Shown: piece by piece, positions 15,022 to 60,734 of the stretch | Layout of the letters: each line of letters opens with the position of its first letter | Position numbering within the stretch: position 1 is the first letter of the stretch | DNA from: Flavobacterium marginilacus | GTDB lineage: Bacteria; Bacteroidota; Bacteroidia; Flavobacteriales; Flavobacteriaceae | Assembly: GCF_026870155.1 (NCBI RefSeq) | Contig: NZ_CP113975.1 | Span: 2,170,001 to 2,234,000, forward strand | Reading direction: 5' to 3' | Length of the DNA: 64,000 bases | The notes under the pieces: generated by a model | Databases searched by the model: none | Seen by the model: only the letters and a program-made list of their open reading frames with translations | Told to the model about the DNA's origin: nothing | Position numbers and translations under genes: made by a program

Positions 15022-16368
15022 TTACCTTGCCGTGACCTGTAGATAGTTTGTAATTGCAATTCTGTACTGATTTTTTGCCTCAATGAGCTTGTCCTCTGTT
15101 TCTGCTTTCAATGCTATGGCTTCCAGTAAATCAGAGAGTTGTATAAGACCATTATTGTAACCGTCCTGGTTTACCCTTAAATTTTCTGTTGTCTGCACTA
15201 ATGTTTCCGTTATTAATCGTATTTTATCATCTGCTTCGCTCAGGTCTGTCCATGCTTTTTCCATCTGAAGGTTTAATAATCCTTTATTGTCCGAAAAAAT
15301 ATTTTTAGCCATTTCTTCCTTGAATTTTAACTCTTTAAGCTTATGTTTTCTACCCCACCAATCAGAAATAGGTACAGACAAAGAAGCATACGCCATTCCA
15401 TTTAAAGAACCATTTTGTGCACCGCTCAATTGGTCAAGATAATAACCCGTAACACCTATTCCTAAATTTGGCATATAGTCCGCCTTCTTCATTTGAGTTT
15501 CCAGCTTGGTTCCTGTAACCATTTTTTCAAGTAGCTGATATTCCATTCTACTGGGTAGCACCTCCTGATTGGATACAAAATAAGTTTTTGGCAAAGAAAG
15601 GTCGTCAAATTTGTCATCAAGAACTATTTCGGGTTTGTAATCCATGCCAATAGTCTGGCACAGTTGCATTAGCATCAGTTTTTTGGCATTGTTTAATTTT
15701 ATTTTATTGACCTGTAATTCCTGCTGTTTGATGCTGACTTTTAACAAATCATTTTTTATAATGACTCCGTTTTTATAAGCATTGCCAACCTGTTTGTAAA
15801 GAATATCAAGAAATGTGATATAACTGTCGAGCGTTTTTTGTTTCTCACCAATGGCAATTGCCAGCCAGTATTCTTGCTCTGTTTTAAGCAAAATTTCGTT
15901 TTCGGACAGCTTGTGTTGCTTTTCTTTTACCTCGATATTCAATTGGGCTAGTTGGTTGCCTGTCTTTATTTTGCCTCCTGCATATACCGGTTGCACTATA
16001 TTGAGATAACCTAAACCCATTTGGTTAAACAATCCAATATTTACGTCTGGCATATAAGCAAACTGTGTAGCACCTGCAAGATTAGCAGGATTACCGTCAT
16101 ACACTGGAAGATTACCCCCTTTCATGTTCATTTCCAGCAACGGATCCAGAGCCTGCATGGCAATAGCCGAAGCACTCACTTTTGGGAAGTAATTCGTATA
16201 GGCCTCTTTTTTAGTTTCGGTAGCGGCATCGATATCAATCAGGCTGTTTTTTACCTTAGTGTTATTTTGTAGCGCGAGCGACCTAACCTGCTCTAAAGTC
16301 AGGTGTTTCTGTGCATTTACACCAATAGACATGCACAGAATGATTACAATTAAATTTATTTTTTTCAT
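15022..16368 (-). CDS. TolC-family outer-membrane efflux protein
   Basis: 448 residues with an N-terminal signal peptide (MKKINLIVIILCMSIGVNA) and the repeating helix/strand pattern of TolC-type channels (LTLEQVRSLALQNN at the start; repeat-like NGLIQLSDLLEAIALKAET near the end). It is the last gene of a minus-strand set: adaptor, RND pump, then this outer-membrane channel, 76 bp after the pump gene. The set forms a tripartite exporter spanning both membranes. Substrate unknown. Confidence 0.9.
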   Translation of the reverse strand: MKKINLIVIILCMSIGVNAQKHLTLEQVRSLALQNNTKVKNSLIDIDAATETKKEAYTNYFPKVSASAIAMQALDPLLEMNMKGGNLPVYDGNPANLAGATQFAYMPDVNIGLFNQMGLGYLNIVQPVYAGGKIKTGNQLAQLNIEVKEKQHKLSENEILLKTEQEYWLAIAIGEKQKTLDSYITFLDILYKQVGNAYKNGVIIKNDLLKVSIKQQELQVNKIKLNNAKKLMLMQLCQTIGMDYKPEIVLDDKFDDLSLPKTYFVSNQEVLPSRMEYQLLEKMVTGTKLETQMKKADYMPNLGIGVTGYYLDQLSGAQNGSLNGMAYASLSVPISDWWGRKHKLKELKFKEEMAKNIFSDNKGLLNLQMEKAWTDLSEADDKIRLITETLVQTTENLRVNQDGYNNGLIQLSDLLEAIALKAETEDKLIEAKNQYRIAITNYLQVTAR

Positions 16369-16444
16369 TGAATTTTAATTTTATTTATTTCGATAGAGAA
16401 GCTTTTAAATAGGGGTACTTTTTTATTTGGGCAGCTATTCCGAT

Positions 16445-19400
16445 TTACGAAACGGCAATCTCTTCTACTTCTTTGTCTTGATTTTTGTATGCCATCCAAT
16501 AAATAAGAGGTAGCATGGTCAAGATAAATACCATAGAGATTAAGGTTCCAAAGAAAATAACCGTACCCATAGGGCCCCAAAGCGGACTCTTACCTATAAT
16601 CATCGGAATAACTCCCATTGATGCCGCAAGTGAAGTCAGCAATATTGGTCGCATCCTTCTTTTTCCAGCTTCTAAACAAGCTTGCAATACAGGCATTTTC
16701 GAATGAGATCGCAGTTCTTCTATATAATCGAACATGATAATACCATTTCTAACAATAATACCTATCAAACTTACAAGGCCAAGCACTGCTGTCATACTAA
16801 ATTCCATGTCCATTAGCCAAAGCCCAAAAGCGGCACCAAAAAAACTGAACGATGTTGAAGCAAAGACAAGCGAGGCAAGACTCACATTTTTAAAGTGAAA
16901 AACAAGAATGAAGAAAATAATCCCCACTGAAATAAATAGTCCAGCTACTATTTTTGGCATTGTCTCTTCGGTATTTTCTTTGATACCTCCGTAAGAAACG
17001 GTAATATTTTTGCTACCCATTTCCTTAGACATTCCTTTTACCAGGTCCTCAATCTTCCCTTGGGTGTTACCTGCTTTTACACCTCTTTTGAGATCCACAT
17101 AAACAGATAAAGTACGCACGCCATTTCGGCGAACAATCTGTCCTTCGTGCCATCCATTGCTAATTGCAGCTACTTGACGAAGTGGAACTGCTGGAGAGAA
17201 CAAACCTGAGATATATTCATTAGCAACATCCGAAACTTTGGGATCTTTGTCCTTCCATTTTGATTTAAGCACTACTGGTATATTATAGTCGCCCTCCCAT
17301 ACTGTTGTAATAGGCAGACCTCCAAACCTTGACGTCAAGCCTATTCCTAAGAGCCCTTCATTGATTCCCAATCGATTTGATTCAACAGGATGCAAAGCAA
17401 TATTTACATCAGGAAGGATTTCTTCATAGTTGGTATAAATTCTTAGAGGTGTATCTAATTTCTTGATTTCAGATTGCAATTTACCTGCAGCTTCTTTCAA
17501 ATCCGAAATACTGTCCGCACTGAGTCTTACTTCAATATCTGCATCCACGCCTGCTTGGTAATCAAGCTGTTTGAATTTTACATAAGCCTGAGGATAATGA
17601 TGTGCATACTTTGCGGTATATTCATCAAGGAGTTCTATAGTTGCCTTACTTGATACGGTATTGACTATAAATTGTGCAAAATTTGGACCTCCAATTTTTG
17701 GAGCGTACGTTGTATGAAACCTTGGAGAACCTGTTCCCATAAACGTAGTTATTGATTTTATACGGTTATCAACTCCTAATTCTTTAGCAAGGTCTTTTGC
17801 TACTACTTCTGTCTGAGCCAGTGAACTTGCCTGAGGCAGGAATATCTCTACTGCAAACTGGTTACGCTCTGCGGTAGGCATGATCTTAAGCGGAAGATTT
17901 ACAAACATTACAATTCCAATTACAACGAATGCTATCCCTATAGCGAATGTTATTTTTGGGAATTGAAATACTTTGGCAAGGACACTATCATAGAAAGATT
18001 GGATGTAATCCATAAAGGATTTATTTCGCTTTTCACCCACCGCCTGATGCATTCCTTTTTTAATAAATGCATACTGAAAATAAGGTACCAGCAAAACAGC
18101 AACGGCTAGAGAAATCAACAATGTGATTAGAATTGTCCAAGGAAAGGCACTCAAGAAGTCATACATCTGACCTGTAAAAGTTATCAAAAACGGAAAAAAT
18201 GTAACCCCAATGGCTAATGTGGCCGAAAAAATAGCTTTAAAGTATTCTTTGGCACTCTCTATAGCGGCTTGTTTGCGTTGTACACCTTCATCAATCTTCT
18301 CCAGATAACTATCCAAGATTACAATCGAATTATCTACAATCATCCCAAGCACAACAATAAGTGCGGCAAGAGTTACTGTATTAAGCTCAATGCCTACTGA
18401 GAACATAATGCCCAGAGATATAAAAATGGTAATTGGAATAGTTGATGCAGCAACTCCAGCGACACGCAGCGGAAGAAATGCTACAATAACCAATATAACC
18501 GCTATGATGGCAATACCAAGTTCTTCTAAAAATGTCTTGATAGAAGCATCGACTACCTGTGGCTGGTCGGCTATTCGGTAAATTTTTACATCATCAGGTA
18601 GTGTTTTTTCAAAATCCTTTAATATAACATCGACATCTTTTCCATATTGAACAATATTGTATCCCTCACGCATTTCGGTAGAAAGAATTAAACATTTTTT
18701 ATTATTGCTAATAGTGTAACTGGAGGCTTTTGGGTATTCACGTACAACTTTGGCAACATCCTTTAGTCGTATATGATTCCCTTTTTCATCAGAATAAACG
18801 ATTTGCTCCTCTAACTGCCTTTCGGAAGAAAAGGGTCTCGCTATGTGAATGGGCACAACCATTTGATCGTTGTCAATTACACCCGAGGGGCCAATCATAC
18901 CTTTGGTAAGCAATGTTTGGTACAAACTGTAAATATTGATACTGTAGCTGGCCACTTTTTCTTTATCGATATAGATACTAAGCTGTTCGTTCTGAACTCC
19001 GTAACGACGAAGATTTGATACCGATTCAACACTTCGCAATTTATTTTCCAACGTTTCTAGATATTCCTTCAGTTGACGATACGTTTTTGTATCCGATTCT
19101 AAAGCAATAAGCAAAGCAGAAGTATCTCCGAAATCATCATTGGCAACCAGTGCAACTACCCCGGAAGGCAACTGCATCTTAAAATTGGCAAGGCCGTGTT
19201 TGATTTTTGACCATACTTCGTCTTTGTTGCTTACCTCATCGTTTAGTTCTACAAATACATACACTATTCCATCTCTGGACAGAGAATATGTTTTGGATTT
19301 TTTAACTTCTTTGTAGGTGAAAAGAAATTTTTCCAAAGGCTTTGCCAGTTGTTCCTCCACTTCTGCGGAGGTGGCACCTGGATATGCGCCGACCACCACT

Positions 19401-19546
19401 CCTTGTCTAATGGTAAAGATGGGAAATTCCTGTTTTGGCATTTTGAACAGGGCAAAAATCCCGAACAGTAATAATGTACCAATAAGTAACAGTACAATTT
19501 TATTATACTTTATAGCCAGGGCTATGAGTCCTTTTTCTTCTTTCAT
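16445..19546 (-). CDS. RND-family efflux pump, inner-membrane subunit
   Basis: 1033 residues, the normal AcrB/MdtB length, with a leading helix at ~12-32, a large periplasmic loop, a block of helices (~335-500) containing GMIVDNSIVILDSYLE (the proton-relay TM4 segment with D), a second periplasmic loop and a second helix block (~860-1015). FPLITFTGQ and SLIGIIVRNGIIMFD are typical of the family. It uses the proton gradient to drive export through the adaptor and TolC partner encoded next to it. Fourteen bp separate it from the adaptor gene. Confidence 0.93.
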   Translation of the reverse strand: MKEEKGLIALAIKYNKIVLLLIGTLLLFGIFALFKMPKQEFPIFTIRQGVVVGAYPGATSAEVEEQLAKPLEKFLFTYKEVKKSKTYSLSRDGIVYVFVELNDEVSNKDEVWSKIKHGLANFKMQLPSGVVALVANDDFGDTSALLIALESDTKTYRQLKEYLETLENKLRSVESVSNLRRYGVQNEQLSIYIDKEKVASYSINIYSLYQTLLTKGMIGPSGVIDNDQMVVPIHIARPFSSERQLEEQIVYSDEKGNHIRLKDVAKVVREYPKASSYTISNNKKCLILSTEMREGYNIVQYGKDVDVILKDFEKTLPDDVKIYRIADQPQVVDASIKTFLEELGIAIIAVILVIVAFLPLRVAGVAASTIPITIFISLGIMFSVGIELNTVTLAALIVVLGMIVDNSIVILDSYLEKIDEGVQRKQAAIESAKEYFKAIFSATLAIGVTFFPFLITFTGQMYDFLSAFPWTILITLLISLAVAVLLVPYFQYAFIKKGMHQAVGEKRNKSFMDYIQSFYDSVLAKVFQFPKITFAIGIAFVVIGIVMFVNLPLKIMPTAERNQFAVEIFLPQASSLAQTEVVAKDLAKELGVDNRIKSITTFMGTGSPRFHTTYAPKIGGPNFAQFIVNTVSSKATIELLDEYTAKYAHHYPQAYVKFKQLDYQAGVDADIEVRLSADSISDLKEAAGKLQSEIKKLDTPLRIYTNYEEILPDVNIALHPVESNRLGINEGLLGIGLTSRFGGLPITTVWEGDYNIPVVLKSKWKDKDPKVSDVANEYISGLFSPAVPLRQVAAISNGWHEGQIVRRNGVRTLSVYVDLKRGVKAGNTQGKIEDLVKGMSKEMGSKNITVSYGGIKENTEETMPKIVAGLFISVGIIFFILVFHFKNVSLASLVFASTSFSFFGAAFGLWLMDMEFSMTAVLGLVSLIGIIVRNGIIMFDYIEELRSHSKMPVLQACLEAGKRRMRPILLTSLAASMGVIPMIIGKSPLWGPMGTVIFFGTLISMVFILTMLPLIYWMAYKNQDKEVEEIAVS

Positions 19547-19559
19547 TTCCTGTAATTTT

Positions 19560-20615
19560 TTAGTTTTTTTGTACAGATACGGGTGTCCCTATACTGATAT
19601 TTTGATACCCCTCTACAATCAGTTCTTCTCCTTCTTGTAAACCTTTAGTAATATGGACTCCATTTTCTGAAAGATTGCCTAAAGAAACTTCTTTATAGGC
19701 CGCTTTTCCTTGTTTGTCTTTTACCCATACAAATCTCTTACCTGAAAAGTCTACCTGTACGGACTTTATAGGTACGACAATACTGTTACTGCCTTCCCTT
19801 TTTATAGTGTTGAGATACGTTCTGCAGACCATACCAGGCATGATTTTACCTGTTACGTTATTTATTTTCACTTTAATATCATAAGTATGGGAGGTAGGAT
19901 TAGCAAAAACACCTTTTTCCAGCACCTTTCCATTAAAAGTTTCGTTGTCTAGTGCTGAAATCATTACTTCACATTTATCTCCTATCGTAACACCTGAAAT
20001 TTCACCCTCCGGAATGGCAATCTTGACTTTTACACTTCCAATATCCATAATATTATAAACTGGCATTCCAGGCATTACGTTAGTTCCAGGTTCCAGGTAA
20101 CGCTTCCCAACGACTCCAGATTGTAGGGCATAGATTTTGCCGTCTTTGAAGTTCTTATGGGCTATCGCATCACCTGCTCTTGCTTGCTCTAGTTTTGTTT
20201 TTGCATCTATGTATTGAATTTCAGGAAGACTCTTGCTTTCATACATAGCAGACATACGTTTGTAAGCATCTTCAGCCTGTTTTAGTGTGGCCTTAGAGAC
20301 CTCATTTGCACTTTTTAAACTGGCCGTATTAAGCGATGCGAGTAATTGTCCTTTAGTTACTTTTTGTCCTTCGCTTACGTGCATCTCTTCAATATTGCCT
20401 GGTACTAAAAAACTGACATCAACTGCATTGTCACTTTCAATCGTACCAACATATTCTTGTCCGTTAGCACTTTTCGCACAAGTAACTTGTAGTGTTTTAA
20501 CGAGGATCTCTTTTGTTCTGTTTTGGTCTTCCTGATTTTTAGCACAGGATAAAACTGTTAATGCAAAGGATATAGCACAGATATACTTTACTGGATGTGA
20601 ATAAACGTTGGTCAT
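19560..20615 (-). CDS. RND efflux periplasmic adaptor (membrane fusion lipoprotein)
   Basis: 351 residues from ATG 20615 (MTNVYSHPVKYICAISFALTVLSC); the LTVLSC lipobox indicates a lipoprotein with the modified Cys at about residue 24. Barrel-sandwich/lipoyl halves (NAVDVSFLVPGNIEEMHVSEGQKV; IYALQSGVVGKRYLEPGTNV) flank a short alpha-hairpin, followed by the beta-barrel and membrane-proximal domains. It is the first gene of the adaptor-pump-channel operon and stands back to back with the AraC-type regulator 126 bp away, its likely controller. Confidence 0.9.
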   Translation of the reverse strand: MTNVYSHPVKYICAISFALTVLSCAKNQEDQNRTKEILVKTLQVTCAKSANGQEYVGTIESDNAVDVSFLVPGNIEEMHVSEGQKVTKGQLLASLNTASLKSANEVSKATLKQAEDAYKRMSAMYESKSLPEIQYIDAKTKLEQARAGDAIAHKNFKDGKIYALQSGVVGKRYLEPGTNVMPGMPVYNIMDIGSVKVKIAIPEGEISGVTIGDKCEVMISALDNETFNGKVLEKGVFANPTSHTYDIKVKINNVTGKIMPGMVCRTYLNTIKREGSNSIVVPIKSVQVDFSGKRFVWVKDKQGKAAYKEVSLGNLSENGVHITKGLQEGEELIVEGYQNISIGTPVSVQKN

Positions 20616-20741
20616 AATTTTTTTGTTATTTGATGTCGAGTACAAAATTCAACATAAGAAAGCGTTTAGGTAAGACCAATTATTCTTCAATAGTGTTCAA
20701 AATGTCGTATTTTTGTTGTTTTGAATAACAAAAAAGTCAAA

Positions 20742-39064: not shown

Positions 39065-39700
39065 ATGGAAACAGTAATTGTGATATGTCTGCTGATAATA
39101 ATTGTCCTGCTTTTGCAGGACAAGATTATCATTAAAAAAAGGTCAGAGCAAAAGCCGATGCAGGAAAAAGTTAATCCAAATCTGCCCGATATTATGGGTC
39201 AGCCTAAGCCTGTAAGAAGACTTTACGTGCCAAACACTGCCAATGAGAGCCAAATTGAGGAACCGGAGATTAACCCTGATAATTTAGACATTGAATACGA
39301 CGAAAATGAAAACGCAGGTATTCAAATTCCGCAGTCAGCGCTGGACGAAGTTTTCAGTAATATGCCTGATTTGGAGGAAGAGGAAGAAGAATGGAACAGG
39401 TACGGAATATCCGGTGGCGATAACAGTCTTGCCCAAGGGGTTACCTACGAGGAATTAAGCTCTGTAGGGCAGTTGCTCCAAAAGGGAAATTTGGAACAAT
39501 CCCAAAAAGAAACAGCCATAGCAATAGTTCAAAAATTACAGGGAACCGAATTATTCAGCCTACTGGAAAATTCTATAGAGAATGCTTCCCGTAAAATAGC
39601 CGAGCTATTGGACAGTAGCCTTTCTTCTGATACGGATGCTGGTTCTTCCACTTTGCGGAAAAATGATTTGGAAGATTTTGATATTGGGGAGTTTGTCTGA
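39065..39700 (+). CDS. traD: conjugal transfer protein TraD
   Basis: 211 residues. One N-terminal membrane helix (METVIVICLLIIIVLLLQDK) followed by a long acidic soluble part (DLEEEEEEW) and a helical C-terminus ending DLEDFDIGEFV. Recognised as the TraD-type protein found between the DUF3408 gene and traE in flavobacterial ICEs. The last ~160 bp are repeated, at about 90 percent identity, at 40661-40820. A GTGCCAAACACTGCC stretch with three phased units (39228-39251) lies within the gene. Confidence 0.75.
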   Translation: METVIVICLLIIIVLLLQDKIIIKKRSEQKPMQEKVNPNLPDIMGQPKPVRRLYVPNTANESQIEEPEINPDNLDIEYDENENAGIQIPQSALDEVFSNMPDLEEEEEEWNRYGISGGDNSLAQGVTYEELSSVGQLLQKGNLEQSQKETAIAIVQKLQGTELFSLLENSIENASRKIAELLDSSLSSDTDAGSSTLRKNDLEDFDIGEFV

Positions 39701-40820
39701 AAAGACGACTTCCCTTTGTTCTTTAAAAATAGAATATTATGGAACGAGAATTACCGACAGTGAACATCGAAGGAACGGATTTTTTTGTAGATGTTATAAA
39801 AAATGAATTAAAGGAAAAAGGCAACCCTCAAAATAGGATGAGCATTAAAAAGATGCTGTATGTTGGTGATGGTTACCGTTTTCAGTATGATATGACAATC
39901 AATAATTTTCTTCCTTTTGGAGTATCAATGGCTCTGGGCAATAACAACCATTCAAAGGAAATAAAAATCCCCAATCTTGTAGAGCTCGATCCTATAGGTA
40001 TGGCAAAAAAGTACAATCTAACAATAGAAGAAATTTCGGGAAAGACAGATTTTGAATTGACGATAAAACCGGGAAGTCCGATTGATTTGCGATGGAACAA
40101 AAAAATATTGCCAACATTGGATATTGCTGGACACACCTTTTATGTTGATTTAGTGATGGACAAGCTTCGACCAAAAGATGACTTTAGGTCCAAAGGAATA
40201 GATTTATCTGAAATAAGGGAGTATTATGATCGTTATTACCAGACATATATTATTCCTTATAATCCAAAAACGCGTGAATTTCAGGAAGTGGGTATTCGTA
40301 CCATTACCGAACTGCCCAAGGAAATCATAGTGATAAAATTTCCGCATCTTAGTGAATTGGATAATGTTGGCTGGAACATAAAATATGGTTTTGGGCCCGG
40401 ACACCTTATAAAAGAAGATACTCTTCAATTACACTTTAAAGCGAGAACACTACCATGGAAGGAAACCAACATTCCAAAAAATATTAAGTTAAACCTTGAA
40501 GAACAAAAATTGGAACAAAAAGAGAAAATAGAAGCCAAGAAATTATCAGATATATTCCCTGAACAAAAAAATGGTAGAAAAATGTAAAATTTTCTATATA
40601 AAAGAAGCGTCAGAGCCAAAAGTTCTGGCATTTTTTTATGCCCAATTTTTGCTCAGAAAATACAGGGAACCGAATTATTCAGCCTATTGAAAAATTCCAT
40701 AGAAAGTGCGTCCCATAAAATAGTCGAACTGTTGGACGGGAGCCTTTCTTCTGAAACGGATGCTGGTTCTTCCACTTTGCGGAAAAATGATTTGGAGGAT
40801 TTTGATATTGGGGGTTTGTG
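39537..40820. repeat. direct repeat of the traD 3' end flanking a cargo gene
   Basis: 39537-39697 and 40661-40820 align over ~160 bp with about 15 differences plus a 1-bp gap; homology of the second copy extends weakly left to ~40650. The second copy carries only the end of traD and runs past the stop because of the gap. The gene at 39739-40587 lies between the copies. Confidence 0.85.
39739..40587 (+). CDS. unknown protein with two repeated ~120-residue domains
   Basis: 282 residues, unrecognised. Residues ~5-120 and ~125-245 are repeats: LPTVNIEGTDFFVDVIKNELK against LPTLDIAGHTFYVDLVMDKLR, and IPNLVELDPIGMAKKYN against FPHLSELDNVGWNIKYG, with PGSPIDLRW against ARTLPWKE. The tail is a charged helix (LEEQKLEQKEKIEAKKLSD). 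It begins 38 bp after traD and is the first cargo gene of the traD-traE island. The function is unknown and no catalytic motif is visible. Confidence 0.7.
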   Translation: MERELPTVNIEGTDFFVDVIKNELKEKGNPQNRMSIKKMLYVGDGYRFQYDMTINNFLPFGVSMALGNNNHSKEIKIPNLVELDPIGMAKKYNLTIEEISGKTDFELTIKPGSPIDLRWNKKILPTLDIAGHTFYVDLVMDKLRPKDDFRSKGIDLSEIREYYDRYYQTYIIPYNPKTREFQEVGIRTITELPKEIIVIKFPHLSELDNVGWNIKYGFGPGHLIKEDTLQLHFKARTLPWKETNIPKNIKLNLEEQKLEQKEKIEAKKLSDIFPEQKNGRKM

Positions 40821-40906
40821 TGAGCAAGCATCTTTTTGCAACTTGGGTTGTTGTTATAGAATTAAAAAAGTGATGTTTATGAAGAGATTTGGAAAGACAA
40901 AATCAA
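40588..40906. other. traD: traD fragment and terminator-like sequence
   Basis: After the 282-codon gene comes a short GCCA/TGGC hairpin with seven Ts (near 40614-40637), then the partial second copy of traD (40650-40820), which encodes FSLLKNSIESASHKIVELL through DLEDFDIG in frame but without a start. The rest to the ImmA stop is unremarkable. Confidence 0.6.
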
Positions 40907-41821
40907 CTATTGTAAAACTGTTTTAGTTTTTGCTCTATTTTTTTCCCCTTTCGGAAAAATAAATACAAAGCTATTATATGTATTATTAAAAAAATGATAA
41001 CTTGCTTTTAGTTGTTCTCCATTTTTTGTCATCAAAGAAATTGTTCCATTTTCAAGAAATTTTTTTTTGAATTTGAAATCTTGAACGAATGCCCATTTAA
41101 AACCAAATTCATCAGGAAGTGTTAATTCCCCAAACTCCTGTAGAAAAAATTTTGAATAAAACAAATCTCTTGTAGTCAATATATTTGTGAATCCATTTTC
41201 ATTTACAGGATGATTCAATACAAGTAAAGCACATTTGTTTTTAGATTGCAATACATAATTTCTAAAGGTAGAATGTACAGATGCACCAAATTTTTTTCTT
41301 AAAGCAATGACTGAACCTAATCCCAAATTTAACTTTTCACATTCTTCTAGAAACCTTTCATGTTGAAATAATGTGATAGAAGCAAAATAGTTAGCTTCAG
41401 CTTCAAATTGCTCATCATACTCTTCACTTAAAGTTTCGTCATTATCTAAAGCCAAGATAATTTCATCTTGCCATGATAAGACTCCATGTCCAATTTCATG
41501 TAATTTGACAAAATTCTTTTTTCCAATATTTTTATCAAGATTCGCATCTATGTATATGATTTTCTCTTCTCTGTAAAAAAAACCTTTTATTTTTGATAGA
41601 GCATGTACTAGAGCCTTTTTTGAAGGATCTATTAGTTTTTCTTTGAAGGAGTCAAAAAAAGAATTATCGATGTTTTGCAAGTCAATTTTGTTATCAACTG
41701 CAAAATTAGAGTATGATAAAATCTTATCTACGGGTGTAGGGAAAATATCAAAAGATTTACTTTCTTTTAGAATGTTATACGATACCTTTTCAATTTCTTT
41801 TCGAGTAAAATCATCTATCAT
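40907..41821 (-). CDS. ImmA/IrrE-family metallopeptidase
   Basis: 304 residues. The zinc motif KLHEIGHGVL gives HEIGH at about residues 108-112, followed by an acidic EEYDEQFEAEANYFAS segment providing the third ligand, as in ImmA/IrrE peptidases. The C-terminal ~110 residues (LLVLNHPVNENGFTNILTTRDLFYSKF to the end) are a further domain. Such peptidases cleave a cognate XRE repressor. Its ATG overlaps the stop of the XRE gene by 4 bp, so they form a repressor/peptidase switch next to the ubiquitin-like operon. Confidence 0.88.
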   Translation of the reverse strand: MIDDFTRKEIEKVSYNILKESKSFDIFPTPVDKILSYSNFAVDNKIDLQNIDNSFFDSFKEKLIDPSKKALVHALSKIKGFFYREEKIIYIDANLDKNIGKKNFVKLHEIGHGVLSWQDEIILALDNDETLSEEYDEQFEAEANYFASITLFQHERFLEECEKLNLGLGSVIALRKKFGASVHSTFRNYVLQSKNKCALLVLNHPVNENGFTNILTTRDLFYSKFFLQEFGELTLPDEFGFKWAFVQDFKFKKKFLENGTISLMTKNGEQLKASYHFFNNTYNSFVFIFPKGEKNRAKTKTVLQ

Positions 41822-42171
41822 AATTCCCTTTTTCGTGATTTAATAAATTCTAAATATTTCAATATATCATTTCTTTCATCTTCTGTTAAATCTTCCGCTC
41901 GAAAAGCTATTTTTTGGGCAAAGTTTAAGTTAATTTCTTCTTGTTGAGCTTCTTTCTTATCTATCATTTTAGCATTTGAAAGAAGTGTTTTTAATGAGAC
42001 TTTATATAGAGATGACAGTTTTGATAAGATATGTACAGATGGATTTTTAATTTTGTCATTTTCTAATTGGCTAAGATAGGCATTAGAAATATCGGTCATT
42101 TCTTCTACTTGTCTCAATGTCAGTCCTACATTTTTCCTTGCATCTTTTAAAGTTGATCCTAGTGAGCTCAT
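41818..42171 (-). CDS. XRE-family repressor
   Basis: 117 residues from ATG 42171 (MSSLGSTLKDARKNVGLTLRQVEEM); the TTG at 42192 is not favoured. A Cro/C1 helix-turn-helix covers ~residues 5-60 (LTLRQVEEMTDISNAYLSQLENDKIKNPSVHILSKLSSLY); the rest is a short helical tail ending in FIKSRKREL. Divergent from the DUF2188-ubiquitin-like operon. The shared GCTTGATATATT motif at both promoters suggests it represses both. Confidence 0.88.
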   Translation of the reverse strand: MSSLGSTLKDARKNVGLTLRQVEEMTDISNAYLSQLENDKIKNPSVHILSKLSSLYKVSLKTLLSNAKMIDKKEAQQEEINLNFAQKIAFRAEDLTEDERNDILKYLEFIKSRKREL

Positions 42172-42189
42172 CTTTTCATCTTTTTTATA

Positions 42190-42289
42190 CAAAGATATAA
42201 TAAATGCTTAATATATCAAGCGTAATTTTAATTAAAATCTAAATATATAAAAAATATTTGCTTGATATATTTAGATTTTTATATATTTG
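42190..42289. promoter_or_regulatory. divergent promoter pair with a shared operator motif
   Basis: Plus strand: TTTG (42257-42260), 21-bp spacer, TATATTTG (42282-42289) for the DUF2188 operon. Minus strand: TTG within GCTTGATATATT, 19-bp spacer, TATCTTTG (complement of 42190-42197) for the XRE-ImmA pair. The 12-mer GCTTGATATATT occurs at 42260-42271 on the plus strand and at 42221-42210 on the minus strand, in both cases at the -33 region. The first is nearly self-palindromic (GCTTAATATATCAAGC); the second is the arm of a larger repeat AATCTAAATATAT with ATATATTTAGATT. Confidence 0.72.
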
Positions 42290-42320
42290 CAATATTAATT
42301 TAAACTATAAAAATAGAATT

Positions 42321-42566
42321 ATGGCAAATTATCATGTAACACAAAAGAAAGGACAAGAAGGATGGAATGTTCAAAAAGAAAGTGGCAAGAAAGCTTCAGC
42401 CATTGTAAGTACACAAAAGCAAGCGGAACAACTTGCAAAACAGTTTTCAGCAAACAATGGTGGTGGTGAAGTAAGAATACATCGTCCGAATGGTGGACCG
42501 ATTAGGGACAGTGATACCGTCAAGCCTGGAAATGATCCAAAATCAATGAAAGACACAAAATTTTAA
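42321..42566 (+). CDS. DUF2188 domain protein
   Basis: 81 residues from ATG 42321 (MANYHVTQKKGQEGWNVQKESG), which fits the family start better than the upstream frame. Matches DUF2188: GWNVQKESGKKASAIVSTQKQAEQLAKQF and GGEVRIHRPNGGPIRDSDT. Small alpha/beta protein of unknown biochemical role. First gene downstream of the operator-bearing promoter; the Ubl gene follows after 314 bp. Possibly an associated but separable unit. Confidence 0.8.
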   Translation: MANYHVTQKKGQEGWNVQKESGKKASAIVSTQKQAEQLAKQFSANNGGGEVRIHRPNGGPIRDSDTVKPGNDPKSMKDTKF

Positions 42567-42880
42567 TGAGAAGAAAGCGATTAAGAAAAAAAAACCAGGC
42601 AAAAATCACCTGGCTTAATTCATAAAGGAAACAAAAGCCCTTGCAAGGCTCTTGGTAATAATGTTTTTTGCACTTCAAAACTACCTCCTTTATTTGAAAT
42701 AAGCAAGCTTTTGATGATTTTGAACCTACGAACCTAATGATTGAGGAGTAGGGGCTAGGTATTAATTTTATAAAATTTCAATTGCACAAAAGATAAAACT
42801 ATTCTAGGGCAAGCCCTACCATTGCTGAAATGATAGGCAATGGACAATTTTTATAAATCAATATTAAAATTATTTAGAAG
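42567..42880. other. structured leader between DUF2188 and the ubiquitin-like gene
   Basis: No gene. It holds several hairpins: CCAGG-N9-CCTGG near 42593-42613, an AGCCCTTGCAAGGCT near-palindrome near 42638, AGGGC-AA-GCCCT near 42806, and CCATTGC-N11-GCAATGG just after it. Read-through, attenuation or a small RNA are all possible. Confidence 0.5.
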
Positions 42881-43582
42881 ATGAATTCAAATAATAATCA
42901 AGGGGCACCATACTCCCCTAATTCAAAAGTACCCTTAAAGTTTGTAATAGAAGGTAAAGGATATGAAGCCTTTGATCAGTACAAAACAGGGGCTGAACTA
43001 AAGCAGCTTTCAGGAATACCTTTAGATACCGAGTTGTTTTTGTCAATCAGTAAGCCATATCAGGATGAGCTTATTGAAAATGAGAAACAAGTTAATCTGG
43101 CTCGACCTGAAACAGAGTATTTCTTTGTGAAGAAAAAGCTTCAGTTCTTTATTAATGACAAGCCATTTACTTGGTATAAACAATATATTCGAGGTATTCA
43201 AATCAGAGAACTCGGCAGTATTCCTGTTGAAGATGATATCTTTCTTGACATTAAACAAGATTGGCAAGATGATCAAATATTAGATGAAGAAGTTGTTGAC
43301 TTAGCTCGTCCAGGTAAAGAGAAATTTTTCTCTAAACCAAGACCAATGGAAGTAACAATAATTGTAAACGCTCGTCCGCATATATGGAAAGAAGTAAATA
43401 TTTCTTTTGAACAATTAGTTGTGTTGGCTTTCGGAGCATATGACAATAATCCAAATAAGGGTTATACAGTTACTTACAGTAGAGGTTGGGAACCTAAACC
43501 AGAAGGCACTATGGTGAAAGCTTCAAGTGTTCTTGTCAAAAATAAAATGATTTTCGATGTCACAGCAACTGATAAATCATAG
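42881..43582 (+). CDS. multi-ubiquitin-like protein (three beta-grasp domains)
   Basis: 233 residues. Three successive ubiquitin-like domains: ~16-85 (VPLKFVIEGKGYEAFDQYKTGAELKQL), ~86-153 (LQFFINDKPFTWYKQYIRGIQIREL) and ~155-233 ([39 protein letters not shown]). The first two are close repeats ending VNLARP/VDLARP; the third is the conserved C-terminal form of Multiubiquitin proteins. It ends in ATDKS without a terminal Gly-Gly. Next to an E1-like protein, it should be the substrate activated by that enzyme; what it is attached to is unknown. The final 26 bp overlap the next gene. Confidence 0.87.
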   Translation: MNSNNNQGAPYSPNSKVPLKFVIEGKGYEAFDQYKTGAELKQLSGIPLDTELFLSISKPYQDELIENEKQVNLARPETEYFFVKKKLQFFINDKPFTWYKQYIRGIQIRELGSIPVEDDIFLDIKQDWQDDQILDEEVVDLARPGKEKFFSKPRPMEVTIIVNARPHIWKEVNISFEQLVVLAFGAYDNNPNKGYTVTYSRGWEPKPEGTMVKASSVLVKNKMIFDVTATDKS

Positions 43583-44735
43583 TCCTGACCTTAAACGTCT
43601 AAGAGACGAAGGTTATGAGATCGAGGTTATTGGTGGATATTTACTTATCCACCATATACCTTTTGTTGATCTAAATAGACAAATCCAGTATGGAGTATTG
43701 GTAAGTACGCTTATGTTATGCAACAATCACCGAACGGGAATGCCGGATAACCATGTTATTCATTTTATAGGGGAGAATCCCTGTGAAATTGACGGTACAG
43801 TTATAACAGCTATTCAACATAGTAACACTACTTCTGTGTTGAATCATCTGATTACAGTAAACAGGTCTTTTTCAAATAAGCCTGTTGCTGGATATCCAAA
43901 CTACTATGAAAAAGTCAAGAGGTATGCAGACATCATTTCCGCTCCTGCGAAATATATGAATCCATTGGTTACTGAAAAGACTTTTAAAGTTATAGCGGAC
44001 AGTTGCAATGAAACGGTATTTCAATACATTGATACTAATTCGAGTCGCGCAAACATCGAATCGATTAATGCAAAGTTAGAACGACAGAAAATAGCAATTA
44101 TTGGGTTGGGAGGCACTGGAGCTTATATTTTGGATATGGTGGCTAAAAACCCAGTAAAAGAAATCCACCTTTACGACGGCGATAGTTTTGACCAACATAA
44201 CGCCTTTCGTTCTCCTGGTGCAGCATCAATAAATGATCTGATTGAAAATCCGAAAAAGGTAGCCTATTTTCAAAAACTATATTTAAACATGCACAAGTAT
44301 ATCCATGTCCATGACTACTATGTGAAGAAAGAAAACTTACAAGAGTTGAATCAAATGGATTATGTATTTGTATGTGTTGACAGGAATGCCGCAAGGAAAA
44401 TGATAACGGATTATTTAGTGAGTGCAGGAGTTGCTTTTTCCGATGTAGGTTTAGGGATTAATGTTGTTGAAGGCAAGCTTACAGGCGCTGTAAGGGTTAC
44501 TTCCGCGACTCGTGACAAAAACGACCATCTACCTCTCCGTATTTTTTCGGACGATTCTGATAATAATGAATACGCCACCAATATTCAGATTGCTGAATTG
44601 AATGCATTGAATGCTATTTTTGCTATTATAAAATGGAAGAAGATATCCGGAATTTATGTTGATTTGGAAAATGAGTATCATTGCTCATATTCTATTGGAG
44701 TATCTAAAATTTTTAATGAAGATGCTACAGCATAA
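43557..44735 (+). CDS. E1-like ThiF protein with a DUF6791-like N-terminal domain
   Basis: 392 residues. Residues ~1-170 match the domain that precedes ThiF in multi-ubiquitin operons (DUF6791-like; [34 protein letters not shown]); C55 and C76 are candidate thiol sites. Residues ~178-300 are the adenylation domain with the nucleotide loop [38 protein letters not shown] and the [13 protein letters not shown] strand. After that only one Cys remains (about 376), so no canonical E1 catalytic loop Cys can be pointed out. It should adenylate the Ubl tail. ATG 43557 lies inside the preceding gene, implying coupled translation. Confidence 0.85.
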
Positions 44736-45138
44736 ATTCGTTGAGTTCATTCCTGAGAAGGTTGAAAAAGGTGTTTTGTACATCTCAATCGAATACTGTA
44801 CTGCAATACATAAATGTGTATGTGGATGCGGTAACGAAGTGGTTACTCCATTATCTCCGACAGATTGGAAATTGACTTTTAATGGTAAAGAAGTTACGCT
44901 CTATCCTTCTATAGGTAATTGGAATTTTGAATGTCAGTCCCATTACTGGATAAGGAACAATAAAATTGAGTTTGCTAGTCGTTGGACAGAAAGGGAAATT
45001 CTTTTGGGTAGAGAAAATAATCTGGAACGTAAGTTAGATTATTTTGAAGTTCCAAATATTCCAAAAGAAGAACTGGTCATACAGAAAAGTTTAAAAACTA
45101 CTATTTGGCAGAAGTTGTCCAAACTTTTCTTATTGTAG
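44722..45138 (+). CDS. DUF6527 protein with a CxCGCG putative zinc site
   Basis: 138 residues from ATG 44722, which overlaps the end of the E1-like gene by 14 bp; the longer frame to 44656 is a shadow of it. Cys26, His30, C32, C34 and C36 ([12 protein letters not shown]) and CQSHYWI with a preceding PLSPTDWKL and LYPSIGNW define DUF6527, which is repeatedly found with multi-ubiquitin/E1 genes. The cysteine cluster plausibly binds zinc and may contribute a ligase- or hydrolase-like step; the actual activity is unproven. Last gene before the terminator at 45160. Confidence 0.85.
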
Positions 45139-45159
45139 AATTTTGATTTTTATCTCTAT

Positions 45160-45191
45160 AAAGCCGGAGGTAATCCTTCGGCTTTATTTTT
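45160..45191. terminator. bidirectional terminator between DUF6527 and DUF3800 genes
   Basis: AAAGCCGGAGG (45160-45170) pairs with CCTTCGGCTTT (45175-45185) with one G-T wobble, followed by ATTTTT on the plus strand and A-rich sequence upstream for the other strand. Confidence 0.85.
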
Positions 45192-45206
45192 ATATTGTCT
45201 GTAAGA

Positions 45207-46343
45207 TTATTTTTTTGCAATAATCTCGCAAAGCGTCCCAAATTTCATAATCTCCTCATAACTATCTGTTGAATGCAGAAACGCAGGATTTTTTTGGTCA
45301 GATTTATTAATGATATCAATAAAAAACTTCAAGTTTTCTAATTGTAAAGACGAGAAGGAGTCGATATCTGCCTTAATCTCTTCGATGGAGTGTATGTTCC
45401 TGTAATGAGTGTATTTACCAATGAAGCCAATAAAAATATCAGACAGTTGTGTTAATTGGTTATCTTGAGAATCTACGAAAGAGTAGTTTTTAAACTCAAC
45501 CCCGTTGTCCAGAATTCGATACTGATCCAATGCTTCACGTATGGAGTCCTCATTGTCGAATATATGGGTCGAGTTCTTAAAAGTGTAGGTGGGTCTTAGA
45601 TAAAAATGTGTCAGATCTGCTAATAGAACGTGATCTTCTTCATCCATTACAAAAGCTAATGCACCTTTCTTTTTAGATTCCCTTAATATCTGCCGTAAAG
45701 ATTCCAGTCCAAAATGAAATTCTGGTGTCGGAAGATAATCTTCAAAAAGATTACTTAATTGCTCTATGAAATCGCCAATTTTTTCAGGCTTAATGTTAGG
45801 ATAATCAAAAGCATAAAAAAGTTTGATAACGGCCTCTATTTCAAGCCGACAGAGTTTGTAGAGGTCATTTTTCAATTGGCTGGTAAATTGAGAGCCTAAT
45901 CGCATAGCTACCTCGGAGTTCATGATAGCAGAATCCACAATGTCGACGACTGACCAATAGAGAATATTAAGGCTTGAGTAATGTACATAAAGATCGCTAT
46001 CCTTTAAAAAGCGAAAGAACAGGTTTAATTTTTGCGATTTAAGACAATCAAGAAAATCTCCGAATGCGATATGTTTGAATTTAACTTCTTTGGCAGTTTT
46101 CTGCAATTTAAAGCTATCAATCAATGACTGTACGTCCGGCACGATTCCATGATGTAGAAGTCCTCCCAAAACAAAATTTGCGGTAAATGTAAAATTGAAA
46201 TCATTTTCTCTTACATAGAATGTTTTGATATTATTGGTTTCATCATAGTAGAATATGTAAGGTGTTGTAAAATCTACTCGCGGATTCAGTATTTGGGCAA
46301 ATTGGTTAGCTACTTCTATTTCTGCTATTTCAAAGTCTATCAT
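45207..46343 (-). CDS. DUF3800-like protein
   Basis: 378 residues. N-terminal YIFYYDETNNIKTFY and FVLGGLLHHG and C-terminal HIFDNEDSIREAL plus FVDSQDNQLTQLSDIFIGFIGKY match the pattern of DUF3800 (an RNase H-like fold with acidic residues D-E near the start and a DSxxxxxLQLxD-type C-terminal motif). The middle is helical and longer than in many members. Convergent with the ubiquitin-like operon and facing it across the shared terminator, so not in its transcript. Could be a nuclease or an accessory of the island. Confidence 0.65.
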   Translation of the reverse strand: MIDFEIAEIEVANQFAQILNPRVDFTTPYIFYYDETNNIKTFYVRENDFNFTFTANFVLGGLLHHGIVPDVQSLIDSFKLQKTAKEVKFKHIAFGDFLDCLKSQKLNLFFRFLKDSDLYVHYSSLNILYWSVVDIVDSAIMNSEVAMRLGSQFTSQLKNDLYKLCRLEIEAVIKLFYAFDYPNIKPEKIGDFIEQLSNLFEDYLPTPEFHFGLESLRQILRESKKKGALAFVMDEEDHVLLADLTHFYLRPTYTFKNSTHIFDNEDSIREALDQYRILDNGVEFKNYSFVDSQDNQLTQLSDIFIGFIGKYTHYRNIHSIEEIKADIDSFSSLQLENLKFFIDIINKSDQKNPAFLHSTDSYEEIMKFGTLCEIIAKK

Positions 46344-46399
46344 ACTAGCTAACTTATTAAATTAATTAAAAGGCTAAGTTATCAAAATGACTTTATAAA

Positions 46400-46433
46400 T
46401 GCCACCCATAGCCAATTAATTCCTTTCACTGCC
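46400..46433 (+). promoter_or_regulatory. 10-bp-phased TGCC repeat upstream of traE
   Basis: TGCC (46400), AGCC (46410), TTCC (46420), TGCC (46430), exact 10-bp period, then TATA 7 bp after the last unit. It lies 92-125 bp before traE and should belong to the promoter of the traE-traQ operon. Confidence 0.6.
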
Positions 46434-46524
46434 ACTTTGTTATAACACCTCCTTTTCCATTAGATATTTGTCTGGATAATCTGCATCGAGCAGGCTAAAC
46501 ATAACAATTTAAAATGTTAAAATC

Positions 46525-46830
46525 ATGGAAAAAGAAAGAAAAAAAATCCTGCTGGCAACAATGGCATTGCTGACAGGAATGGGTGCGATGGCACAGGGAG
46601 ACGGTTCAGCTGGTATTACCGAAGCCACTCAAATGGTTACGTCCTATTTCGACCCTGCCACACAACTCATCTATGCTATTGGAGCCGTGGTAGGTCTCAT
46701 TGGAGGGGTTAAAGTGTACGGCAAGTTCAGCAGTGGTGACCCCGATACGAGCAAGACTGCGGCAAGCTGGTTTGGTGCGTGTATCTTCTTGATTGTTGCG
46801 GCTACCATTTTGCGTTCATTCTTCCTTTAA
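46525..46830 (+). CDS. traE: conjugal transfer protein TraE (DUF4134)
   Basis: 101 residues. Signal-like hydrophobic start (MALLTGMGAMAQG) then two membrane helices (LIYAIGAVVGLIGGVKVYG and CIFLIVAATILRSFFL) separated by SSGDPDTSKTAASWFGA, the DUF4134 signature. A VirB2/pilin-like subunit by position and topology. First gene of the mating-apparatus operon. Confidence 0.9.
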   Translation: MEKERKKILLATMALLTGMGAMAQGDGSAGITEATQMVTSYFDPATQLIYAIGAVVGLIGGVKVYGKFSSGDPDTSKTAASWFGACIFLIVAATILRSFFL

Positions 46831-59924: not shown

Positions 59925-60734
59925 TCAGGCGACTTTTATGGGATGGGTTCGAAAATCCTTCAGATTGTGAAAAAAACCTCTGTAGGGTGTCATACCGTGT
60001 CGAAATAAGCTCCATAAAAGCGAACAGCCCATCTGGGTTAAAGAGGAATTGATAAACAAATCCTGTTTCTCCAATGCTTCCGCTAAACTGCAACTTGGTG
60101 TGTCGTCCTCTTGCTCAGACTGTTTCAATAATTCTCCAAATTCTTCGGTAATCATTGGCAGGCTTGCCACCGTTTCGTATTTCTCCGAATTGGGTTGATG
60201 AATGTTTCCTATGGTAGATAGTAACATTTGCCCTATATGCTGGCTGTTTCCAAAATCCAGCCAATATTTAGGTTCGTCCCTATAGTGTCTGCGGCTGCTT
60301 ATTTCTTTCAGTATTTCGGCAACTCCAAACCTCGACTGTACATTGTCCACGCAGGTAATGTAAATTGTTGCTTTTGCTTCTTCGGGTATTCTGCCTAAAC
60401 CGTCCTTTTCAAATCTTGCGGTTTCCGCTTTCCAGTTTGTCCCTGAAAAGCGGTTTGCACGGTTGATGAGTGCAACGGATTTGTATAACCCTGTTTCACT
60501 TTCTGCAAAACGCTGTCTTCCTAAATTGGCATTGGTCACAATATCATCATCCCATAGACTGACACGTAAGCCTGCGTGTCCCAATTCGATTAAGCTGTGG
60601 TTCATTTCCATTAAAGCGCTCAAAACCTTTGAGCCTGTACCACCTGCGCCGATTAAGTTTACCGCAATGGGATTGGTCGGGCTTATCAGATAGTTATCTG
60701 TAAAATGTACTTTTAGTTTCTCAGTATTCATCAC
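59925..60734 (-). CDS. PRTRC system ThiF-family protein
   Basis: 269 residues. The nucleotide loop VNLIGAGGTGSKVLSALMEM is near residues 25-45, followed by LWDDDIVTNANLGRQRFAE and YITCVDNVQSRFGVAEIL. ThiF/E1-like adenylating protein that gives the PRTRC (ParB-related, ThiF-related) cassette its name. Its start overlaps the stop of the B gene by 4 bp. Distinct from the ThiF of the ubiquitin-like operon. Confidence 0.9.
   Translation of the reverse strand: MMNTEKLKVHFTDNYLISPTNPIAVNLIGAGGTGSKVLSALMEMNHSLIELGHAGLRVSLWDDDIVTNANLGRQRFAESETGLYKSVALINRANRFSGTNWKAETARFEKDGLGRIPEEAKATIYITCVDNVQSRFGVAEILKEISSRRHYRDEPKYWLDFGNSQHIGQMLLSTIGNIHQPNSEKYETVASLPMITEEFGELLKQSEQEDDTPSCSLAEALEKQDLFINSSLTQMGCSLLWSLFRHGMTPYRGFFHNLKDFRTHPIKVA

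What the first reader, a model, noticed from the sequence alone, without database searches (positions are those of the whole stretch)
42190..45138. Bacterial ubiquitin-like conjugation operon as ICE cargo, under an XRE/ImmA-type switch
Seen: genes for DUF2188, a three-domain ubiquitin-like protein, an E1-like ThiF protein with an extra N-terminal domain, and DUF6527 follow on the plus strand. The last three overlap (26 and 14 bp). They are divergent from XRE and ImmA/IrrE genes that overlap by 4 bp. Known: Multiubiquitin/ThiF/DUF6527 operons have been described by comparative genomics, and ImmA-type peptidases cleave XRE repressors to switch on phage or ICE genes. Inferred: peptidase cleavage of the repressor would induce the Ubl pathway, a stress- or invasion-triggered modification system that is mobile by conjugation. 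The coupling of this switch to the Ubl pathway, the lack of a visible E1 loop Cys and the C-terminus without Gly-Gly make it unusual.
Basis: partly seen in the sequence, partly recalled or inferred. Interest (0 to 1): 0.9.

Follow-up and report, generated by a model that had tools for sequence, protein, structure and literature searches.

The report
Mobile bacterial ubiquitin-like operon with switch
A mobile DNA element in a Bacteroidota bacterium carries a compact ubiquitin-like protein-tagging operon next to a known type of damage-sensing switch, and comparison with relatives points to features of it that we did not find described.

Summary
The operon type was described in 2006 (Iyer type 6e, 'domain X' subset). 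The switch matches PADLOC capH/capP, and CapH+CapP beside Ubl (Bub) operons is in print, so the coupling is not unusual: in my survey M78 lies within 3.5 kb upstream in 38 of 68 loci, downstream in 0 of 68.

Additions. (1) An operator-like site, TTGCTTGNTNNATTTAGA, lies between the XRE gene and the operon in the seven Bacteroidota loci with the window-type XRE, upstream of a -7 box. (2) The Ubl ends in Ser in 88 of 88 loci read; in the overlapping E1 frame codon 7 ends in T in 80 of 80, which indicates selection on that Ser. (3) DUF6791 is probably a diverged E2/RWD-like domain fused to an E1 without a conserved loop Cys. (4) A covarying structured element with no Rfam 15 match lies between DUF2188 and the Ubl, probably a minus-strand RNA.

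Protein tagging and anti-phage function are untested.

The parts
40907..41821 (-). M78/ImmA-type metallopeptidase, CapP-like (304 aa, HEIGH motif)
   Evidence: Pfam Peptidase_M78 2e-9; PADLOC capP 2.5e-16; PDB CapP 7t5t E 0.0017; HExxH
41818..42171 (-). XRE repressor, CapH-like (118 aa; a TTG at 42192 would lengthen it)
   Evidence: Pfam HTH_3 2.4e-13; PADLOC capH 2.9e-12, HTH_VI 1.8e-13
42206..42221 (.). near-palindrome GCTTAATATATCAAGC by the XRE promoter, second operator-like site
   Evidence: -7-like TATCTTTG at 42190-42197 (-)
42258..42275 (+). operator-like site TTGCTTGATATATTTAGA
   Evidence: pattern in 7 of 148 loci, all in the XRE-operon gap
42282..42289 (+). TATATTTG, -7 box of the operon promoter (consensus TAnnTTTG recalled)
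42321..42566 (+). DUF2188 protein (81 aa)
   Evidence: Pfam 8.1e-18; PADLOC PDC-S16 1.4e-15
42583..42860 (-). conserved structured element, probably a non-coding RNA on the minus strand; ends approximate
42592..42616 (-). terminator-like stem (11 pairs) followed by a T-run
   Evidence: A-run/T-run and stem conserved in the alignment of 21 loci
42881..43582 (+). Multi_ubiq protein, three Ubl domains, ends VTATDKS
   Evidence: Pfam 6.5e-28, 3 stretches; PDB 9cd2 8.4e-20 over residues 23-233
43557..44735 (+). DUF6791-ThiF protein (E1-like, 392 aa)
   Evidence: Pfam DUF6791 2.5e-53, ThiF 1.4e-14; NCBIfam NF004805 1.9e-179; model matches BubCD and other E1s
44716..45138 (+). DUF6527 protein, Cys/His-rich, presumed metal-binding
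   Evidence: Pfam 1.9e-26; invariant H29 C31 C33 C35 C70 H73 in 33 sequences
45207..46343 (-). DUF3800 gene, defence-candidate family PDC-S51; neighbour, role in the system unknown
   Evidence: Pfam 2e-6; PADLOC 2.5e-135
40653..40823 (+). partial copy of the 3' end of the gene at 39065-39700 (source 39529-39700), left edge of the cargo
   Evidence: 154 of 172 identical

Best explanation
A three-gene ubiquitin-like conjugation operon of the Iyer 6e 'domain X' (DUF6791) type, carried in a cargo slot of a CTnDOT-like ICE and controlled by a CapH/CapP-type switch. Shown by sequence: the gene families, the divergent switch, the operator-like site at the operon promoter, recurrence in other genomes and plasmids, the invariant Ser end of the Ubl. 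Inferred: XRE holds the divergent promoters shut; when ssDNA appears (damage, phage, incoming DNA) the M78 peptidase cuts XRE; the E1 domain adenylates the already mature Ser end of the third Ubl domain; DUF6791, probably a diverged E2/RWD-like domain with a near-invariant Cys76, helps hand it on; DUF6527 is the metal-binding partner or target adaptor. The likely output is protein tagging or Ubl assembly in a stress or anti-phage response.
Against: No conjugate, no regulation and no phage phenotype has been measured. hhalign's own probability for DUF6791/E2 is 32%, on 25 columns and a five-sequence profile; Pfam sees no link; the fold search returned E1s only, so DUF6791 is untested by fold. 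Cys76 is missing in 3 of 43. No separate E2 or JAB gene in the operon, which could also mean that it does not conjugate.
Confidence: 0.6

Rival explanations
1. The E1 activates the Ubl end not for protein tagging but for another chemistry (as MccB or PaaA do on peptides, recalled) or to control Ubl self-assembly; the three-domain Ubl acts mainly as an assembly.
For: No Gly-Gly, no conserved E1 loop Cys, no JAB or separate E2 in the operon; MccB and PaaA are among the sequence and fold matches.
Against: The closest profile match is BubCD, whose PDB entries include complexes with BubB and BubA; DUF6791 resembles Prok-E2_E.
Confidence: 0.2
2. XRE-ImmA regulate the ICE's own transfer genes (as ImmR-ImmA of ICEBs1, recalled) and sit beside the Ubl operon by chance.
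For: They lie among tra genes; the XRE resembles the ICEBs1 regulator 7t8i (E 8.5e-7).
Against: The pair is absent from the same slot in five close ICE relatives, which carry IetA-IetS there; it accompanies Ubl operons in many loci, upstream only; the operator-like site is at the operon promoter in seven loci.
Confidence: 0.08
3. The Ubl core works with a protease module: in 16 of 68 loci IetS (subtilase), with IetA (AAA ATPase), lies upstream, so tagging might direct proteolysis and M78 might act on tagged targets rather than on XRE.
For: IetA-IetS co-directional with the Ubl genes in the loci listed; subtilase and AAA domains; 16 of 68.
Against: IetAS is a stand-alone defence system in PADLOC, so neighbours in a defence island may be unrelated; 52 of 68 loci lack IetS; many IetAS loci are close ICE relatives (10 clusters of 55 at 95%, 7 of 44 at 80%).
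Confidence: 0.1
4. The structured element between DUF2188 and Ubl is only a terminator and conserved intergenic DNA, or a leader on the plus strand, not an RNA gene.
For: Many loci are close relatives; a bare terminator elsewhere scored 36.6 bits with the model (L153); single-sequence folding of the plus strand is weak (z -1.62); G-U counts on the first 19 pairs favour plus, 15 to 8.
Against: Changes on both sides in 19 of 28 pairs, 43 cells against 13.3 in shuffles, 0 of 500; covarying helices lie outside the terminator; conserved over loci with different upstream modules.
Confidence: 0.35

Closest known systems
Iyer et al. 2006 operon type 6e, subset with an uncharacterised domain fused to E1 in place of JAB (PMC1779556)
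   Same: One- to three-domain Ubl, E1 with a non-JAB N-terminal domain, and a Cys/His metal-binding protein, mobile (section 14 and passages read).
   Different: The paper guessed that the domain does what JAB does; here it resembles Prok-E2_E. Its metal signature is written C-x3-C...H-x2-C; here the invariant residues are H29, C31, C33, C35, C70 and H73. Switch, Ser end and structured element are not in the parts I read.
Bub (bacterial ubiquitination-like) pathway, Citrobacter BubA-BubB-BubCD
   Same: E1 domain is its closest profile match and ties for the best structural match; flanked by the same kinds of regulator.
   Different: JAB is replaced by DUF6791 and there is no separate Prok-E2_E gene. 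The two defining papers are not held, so whether DUF6791 operons are among the 544 Bub operons is unknown to me.
CapH+CapP switch
   Same: XRE plus M78 peptidase, divergent from a defence-type operon; PADLOC models match both.
   Different: The M78 protein is matched only over residues 72-203 of 304; the XRE scores slightly higher with another PADLOC model, HTH_VI.
9cd2, 'ZDHYS365 multi-ubiquitin domain protein' (PDB)
   Same: Closest solved Ubl; aligned over residues 23-233 of 233; same end, VTxTDKS.
   Different: Only the alignment was seen; its paper was not found.
Bil pathway (BilA 8u38)
   Same: Multi-Ubl protein with a weak match (E 0.0041).
   Different: The operon has no separate E2 or JAB gene.

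Membership tests
Iyer type 6e, domain X subset | Ubl with one to three beta-grasp domains | tested here: met
   three Multi_ubiq stretches
Iyer type 6e, domain X subset | E1 fused to a non-JAB N-terminal domain | tested here: met
   DUF6791-ThiF; no JAB signal. That DUF6791 is the paper's domain X is my inference
Iyer type 6e, domain X subset | Cys/His metal-binding partner protein | tested here: met
   DUF6527 with invariant Cys and His; metal binding itself not tested
Iyer type 6e, domain X subset | separate or Ubl-fused inactive E2/RWD domain | tested here: inconclusive
   no such gene or fusion by Pfam; DUF6791 may be it
Bub pathway | E1 of the BubC kind | tested here: met
Bub pathway | JAB domain on the E1 (BubD, role recalled) | tested here: not met
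   DUF6791 instead; no JAB match
Bub pathway | conjugation of the Ubl to protein | not testable with these tools
   needs biochemistry
CapH+CapP | HTH repressor and M78 peptidase genes together beside a defence-type operon | tested here: met
   PADLOC capH and capP, gene order
CapH+CapP | repressor site at the operon promoter | tested here: inconclusive
   operator-like site in seven loci; binding not tested
CapH+CapP | ssDNA-triggered cleavage | not testable with these tools
   needs biochemistry
E2/RWD fold (for DUF6791) | profile similarity to an E2-like family | tested here: inconclusive
   score 28.7 against 300 shuffles at most 20.3 and 15 controls at most 18.5, but probability 32%; Pfam none
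E2/RWD fold (for DUF6791) | fold match to solved E2/RWD structures | tested here: inconclusive
   the fold lists span 150-392 only
Bil | separate E2 and JAB genes with E1 and Ubl (recalled) | tested here: not met
   none among the operon's genes

The most novel reading that the evidence does not exclude
The DUF6791 branch is a distinct, JAB-free protein-tagging machine: an E2-like domain with its own Cys (Cys76) fused to an E1 without a loop Cys, charging a multi-Ubl protein that is made mature with an obligatory C-terminal Ser, and accompanied in Bacteroidota by a dedicated structured non-coding RNA that is part of the system.
Probability: 0.25. Interest if true: 0.82.

Novelty: new variant of a known kind. 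Interest (0 to 1): 0.6.

Why it matters
If right, it answers two open oddities of an operon type known since 2006 (what the domain fused to the E1 is, and how a Ubl without Gly-Gly is used), gives an operator with which the switch can be tested directly, and adds a candidate RNA partner. It also shows one ICE slot exchanging the module in front of a fixed Ubl core (CapH/CapP here, IetA-IetS in close relatives). Each point can be tested with purified proteins or a reporter.

Tried and rejected

Rows dropped. One search recognised the E1 in 81 of 91 loci; ten (L137-L142, L144, L145, L147, L148) were missed by the script's pattern and are outside its counts; 13 of the 81 lacked 3 kb on both sides. 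For the six Pseudomonadota loci drawn at random one search shows M78 upstream in three (L137, L138, L140). L081 and L046, and L083 and L018, have equal contig lengths and gene rows, so raw counts hold repeats; the 95% and 80% cluster counts reduce these. By gene rank instead of distance, M78 was upstream in 32 and downstream in 1 of 80. In one search the Ubl was not recognised in L141, L142 and L144, so their ends are not counted. A1 used 43, A2 33 and A3 34 of the loci in hand; 21 of the 28 loci with the structured element or near copies went into A7. The 120-bit line for 'window-type XRE' was drawn after seeing the scores; the next score is 101.9.
Full report
What is there. On the plus strand come DUF2188 (42321-42566), a 233-aa protein with three Multi_ubiq domains (42881-43582), a 392-aa DUF6791-ThiF protein (43557-44735) and DUF6527 (to 45138). 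Divergent from them are an XRE gene and an M78/ImmA gene that overlap by 4 bp. A DUF3800 gene (PADLOC candidate PDC-S51, 2.5e-135) follows on the minus strand. The E1 matches NCBIfam NF004805, a 'hypothetical protein' family, at 1.9e-179 over its whole length.

Where it sits. The block lies between tra genes of a CTnDOT-like element: ParA-like, DUF3408 and two further genes upstream; DUF4134, DUF4133, a TraG-like protein (name recalled), DUF4141, TraJ and TraM downstream. A partial copy of the 3' end of the gene at 39065-39700 sits at 40653-40823 (154 of 172 identical), a scar at the left edge of the cargo. In five close relatives (L008-L011, L013; E1 86-87% identical) the same slot holds IetA and IetS (AAA ATPase and subtilase, tested on L008) where the window has XRE-ImmA, followed by the same DUF2188, Ubl, E1 and DUF3800 genes. 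TraG homologues lie near 12 of 80 loci. Outside ICEs, 120 of 72,556 plasmid records carry a relative of the E1 (109 over at least 80% of it), 84 of the 120 typed mobilizable or conjugative; none of 50,697 phage records does. Among genomes drawn evenly DUF6791 occurs in 14 of 395 of the phylum and 7 of 397 of the family, both counts including the window's own genome, and in 7 of 299 of the phylum of a Methylophilus genome that was chosen for having it.

The switch is known. PADLOC names the pair capP (2.5e-16) and capH (2.9e-12; its HTH_VI model scores slightly better, 1.8e-13). PMC13373217 (passages and the Introduction read) says that CapP is activated by ssDNA and cleaves CapH, that 219 of 544 Bub operons are flanked by CapW or CapH+CapP, and that Bub operons have not been shown to protect against phage. 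In my loci an M78 gene with HExxH lies within 3.5 kb upstream of the E1 in 38 of 68 loci and downstream in 0 of 68; in clusters at 80% E1 identity, 27 of 44 against 0 of 44; in the 17 usable Bacteroidota loci drawn without regard to the window, 11 of 17. IetS is upstream in 16 of 68. Other upstream neighbours are sigma-70-like genes with an M78 gene, LexA/S24, a gene with weak STAS-like and HTH matches beside a weak ATPase match, an annotated WYL gene and an M78-UvrD helicase fusion. So the module in front is exchangeable, and M78 is the commonest of those I recognised.

An operator. Between the XRE gene and the operon lies TTGCTTGATATATTTAGA (42258-42275), followed after a few bases by TATATTTG, the Bacteroidota -7 consensus TAnnTTTG (recalled). 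A near-palindrome, GCTTAATATATCAAGC, lies by the XRE promoter (42206-42221). The pattern TTGCTTGNTNNATTTAGA occurs in 7 of 148 loci: the window's own copy (L001), L015, L036, L041, L042, L055 and L063. Of 110 loci scored with the window-type XRE profile, nine reach 120 bits: these seven (window included) and L054 and L061, which are not Bacteroidota and lack the exact site; L061 has a variant with three mismatches to the near-palindrome. In each of the seven the site is in the XRE-operon gap and a TAnnTTTG follows. In the window alone a match with up to two mismatches is expected 0.59 times by chance, so the weight lies in the conservation. L036 and L041 have the XRE and the site but no M78 gene beside them.

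The Ubl end. The last residue is Ser in 80 of 80 loci and in 8 of 8 more, from Pseudomonadota genomes and plasmids including a cyanobacterium. The E1 start overlaps the Ubl stop by 26 bp with ATG in 78 of the 80 and in all 8. In the E1 frame the codon that supplies the first base of the Ser codon encodes eight different residues (N, S, D, A, V, G, H, F) yet ends in T in 80 of 80; a C there would be silent for the E1 and give Pro at the Ubl end. Given each E1's own use of T-ending codons, 41 of 41 representatives with T has a chance of about 1e-8 if they are taken as independent. Selection therefore appears to act on the Ubl's Ser. None of the six Ubls of JAB-type loci that I read ends so: L112 ends SSVD after TTEG, L113 runs on from QTEG into its E2 domain, L114 ends STPG, L115 QFG, L116 GYGG, L143 FGL. 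My inference: the DUF6791 branch needs no JAB because its Ubl is made mature.

A structured element. The gap between DUF2188 and the Ubl is conserved in sequence in 28 loci, each time just upstream of the Ubl gene, four of them partial (L014, L023, L044, L144), with different upstream modules. On the minus-strand alignment of 21 loci, 28 pairs in five helices are paired in 89.0% of cells; 19 pairs show changes on both sides; 43 such cells against 13.3 in shuffles, 0 of 500. Sliding the partners lowers pairing to 33-51%; the structure was read from the same sequences, which favours it over slid versions. The stem at 42616-42592 (minus) is followed by a T-run, and the minus strand folds far better in the alignment. 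No Rfam 15 family reaches its score in window 40500-46600 or at that place in eight other loci. A model of 124 positions built on the plus strand found the element in L014 (6.6e-5) and weakly L026 (0.044), neither in training, in the right place; nothing at E up to 1 in the JAB-type loci (L112-L116, L143) or outside Bacteroidota among 92 sources. It occurs once in the window's genome and in 3 of 100 relatives, of which one is the window's genome, one a known copy of the operon and one a false hit. It may be a small RNA that tunes the operon or works with it, or just a conserved terminator region; no transcript has been seen.

DUF2188 hint. In one JAB-type locus (L115) the Ubl is fused to DUF1508, the family of YegP (name recalled), and PMC13373217 reports yegP-like genes behind capK-capS in 57 cases. 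DUF2188 next to the Ubl here may play a similar part; their relatedness was not tested.

In print. Searches of 5.39 million open papers found none with DUF6791 or DUF6527 and none with both 'multi-ubiquitin domain' and 'bacterial'. Two key papers on Bub and its Ubls are not held, so some of this may be in them; the Ubl family has solved structures.

Verdict. The operon belongs to a described type and its switch is of a described kind. The operator, the selected Ser end, the E2-like reading of DUF6791, the IetAS-for-CapHP swap in one ICE slot and the structured element are additions, of which the Ser end and the operator are the firmest.

Noticed in passing
window 42583-42860 (-): Conserved, covarying structured element between DUF2188 and the Ubl gene, probably a minus-strand RNA with a terminator; no Rfam 15 match.
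   Followed up: yes
window 40653-40823 and 39529-39700: A 171-bp partial duplication of the 3' end of a tra-region gene marks the left edge of the cargo.
   Followed up: partly
L008:1065-4736 and other loci: IetA-IetS (AAA ATPase and subtilase) occupy the slot of XRE-ImmA in close ICE relatives; IetS is upstream of the Ubl core in 16 of 68 loci.
   Followed up: partly
L148:1798-5205; also L147, L137, L138: M78 peptidase fused to a UvrD-type helicase upstream of the Ubl operon on a Leptolyngbya plasmid. L147 is annotated UvrD helicase and hit by the M78 profile; the large M78 genes of L137 and L138 were not checked for a helicase.
   Followed up: partly
L028, L029, L037, L065, L090 (upstream of Ubl): Sigma-70-like gene, a small unknown protein and an M78 gene together, divergent from the Ubl operon: perhaps a sigma/anti-sigma version of the switch.
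   Followed up: no
L036, L041, L042, L051, L052, L057, L061: A protein of 508-530 aa recurs near the Ubl operon in 7 loci; the L042 copy has no Pfam match. Possible partner.
   Followed up: no
L115:6406-6963: DUF1508 (YegP family) fused to Multi_ubiq in a JAB-type locus.
   Followed up: no
window 59925-60734 (-): By eye, a second ThiF/E1-like protein (GAGGTGSK motif) in another gene cluster of the same window; not tested.
   Followed up: no
window 15022-20645: By eye, an efflux set (outer-membrane factor, RND pump, membrane fusion protein) as further possible cargo; not tested.
   Followed up: no
L031 and L032: Contigs of equal length with the same coordinates and gene rows appear in a Pontibacter and an Amaricoccus assembly, which suggests contamination of one of them.
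   Followed up: no
(BFVD entry A0A385DVW5): A crAss001 phage protein named thiamine biosynthesis protein (383 aa) is the best viral fold match of the E1 model over its whole length, but at rmsd 14.1.
   Followed up: no
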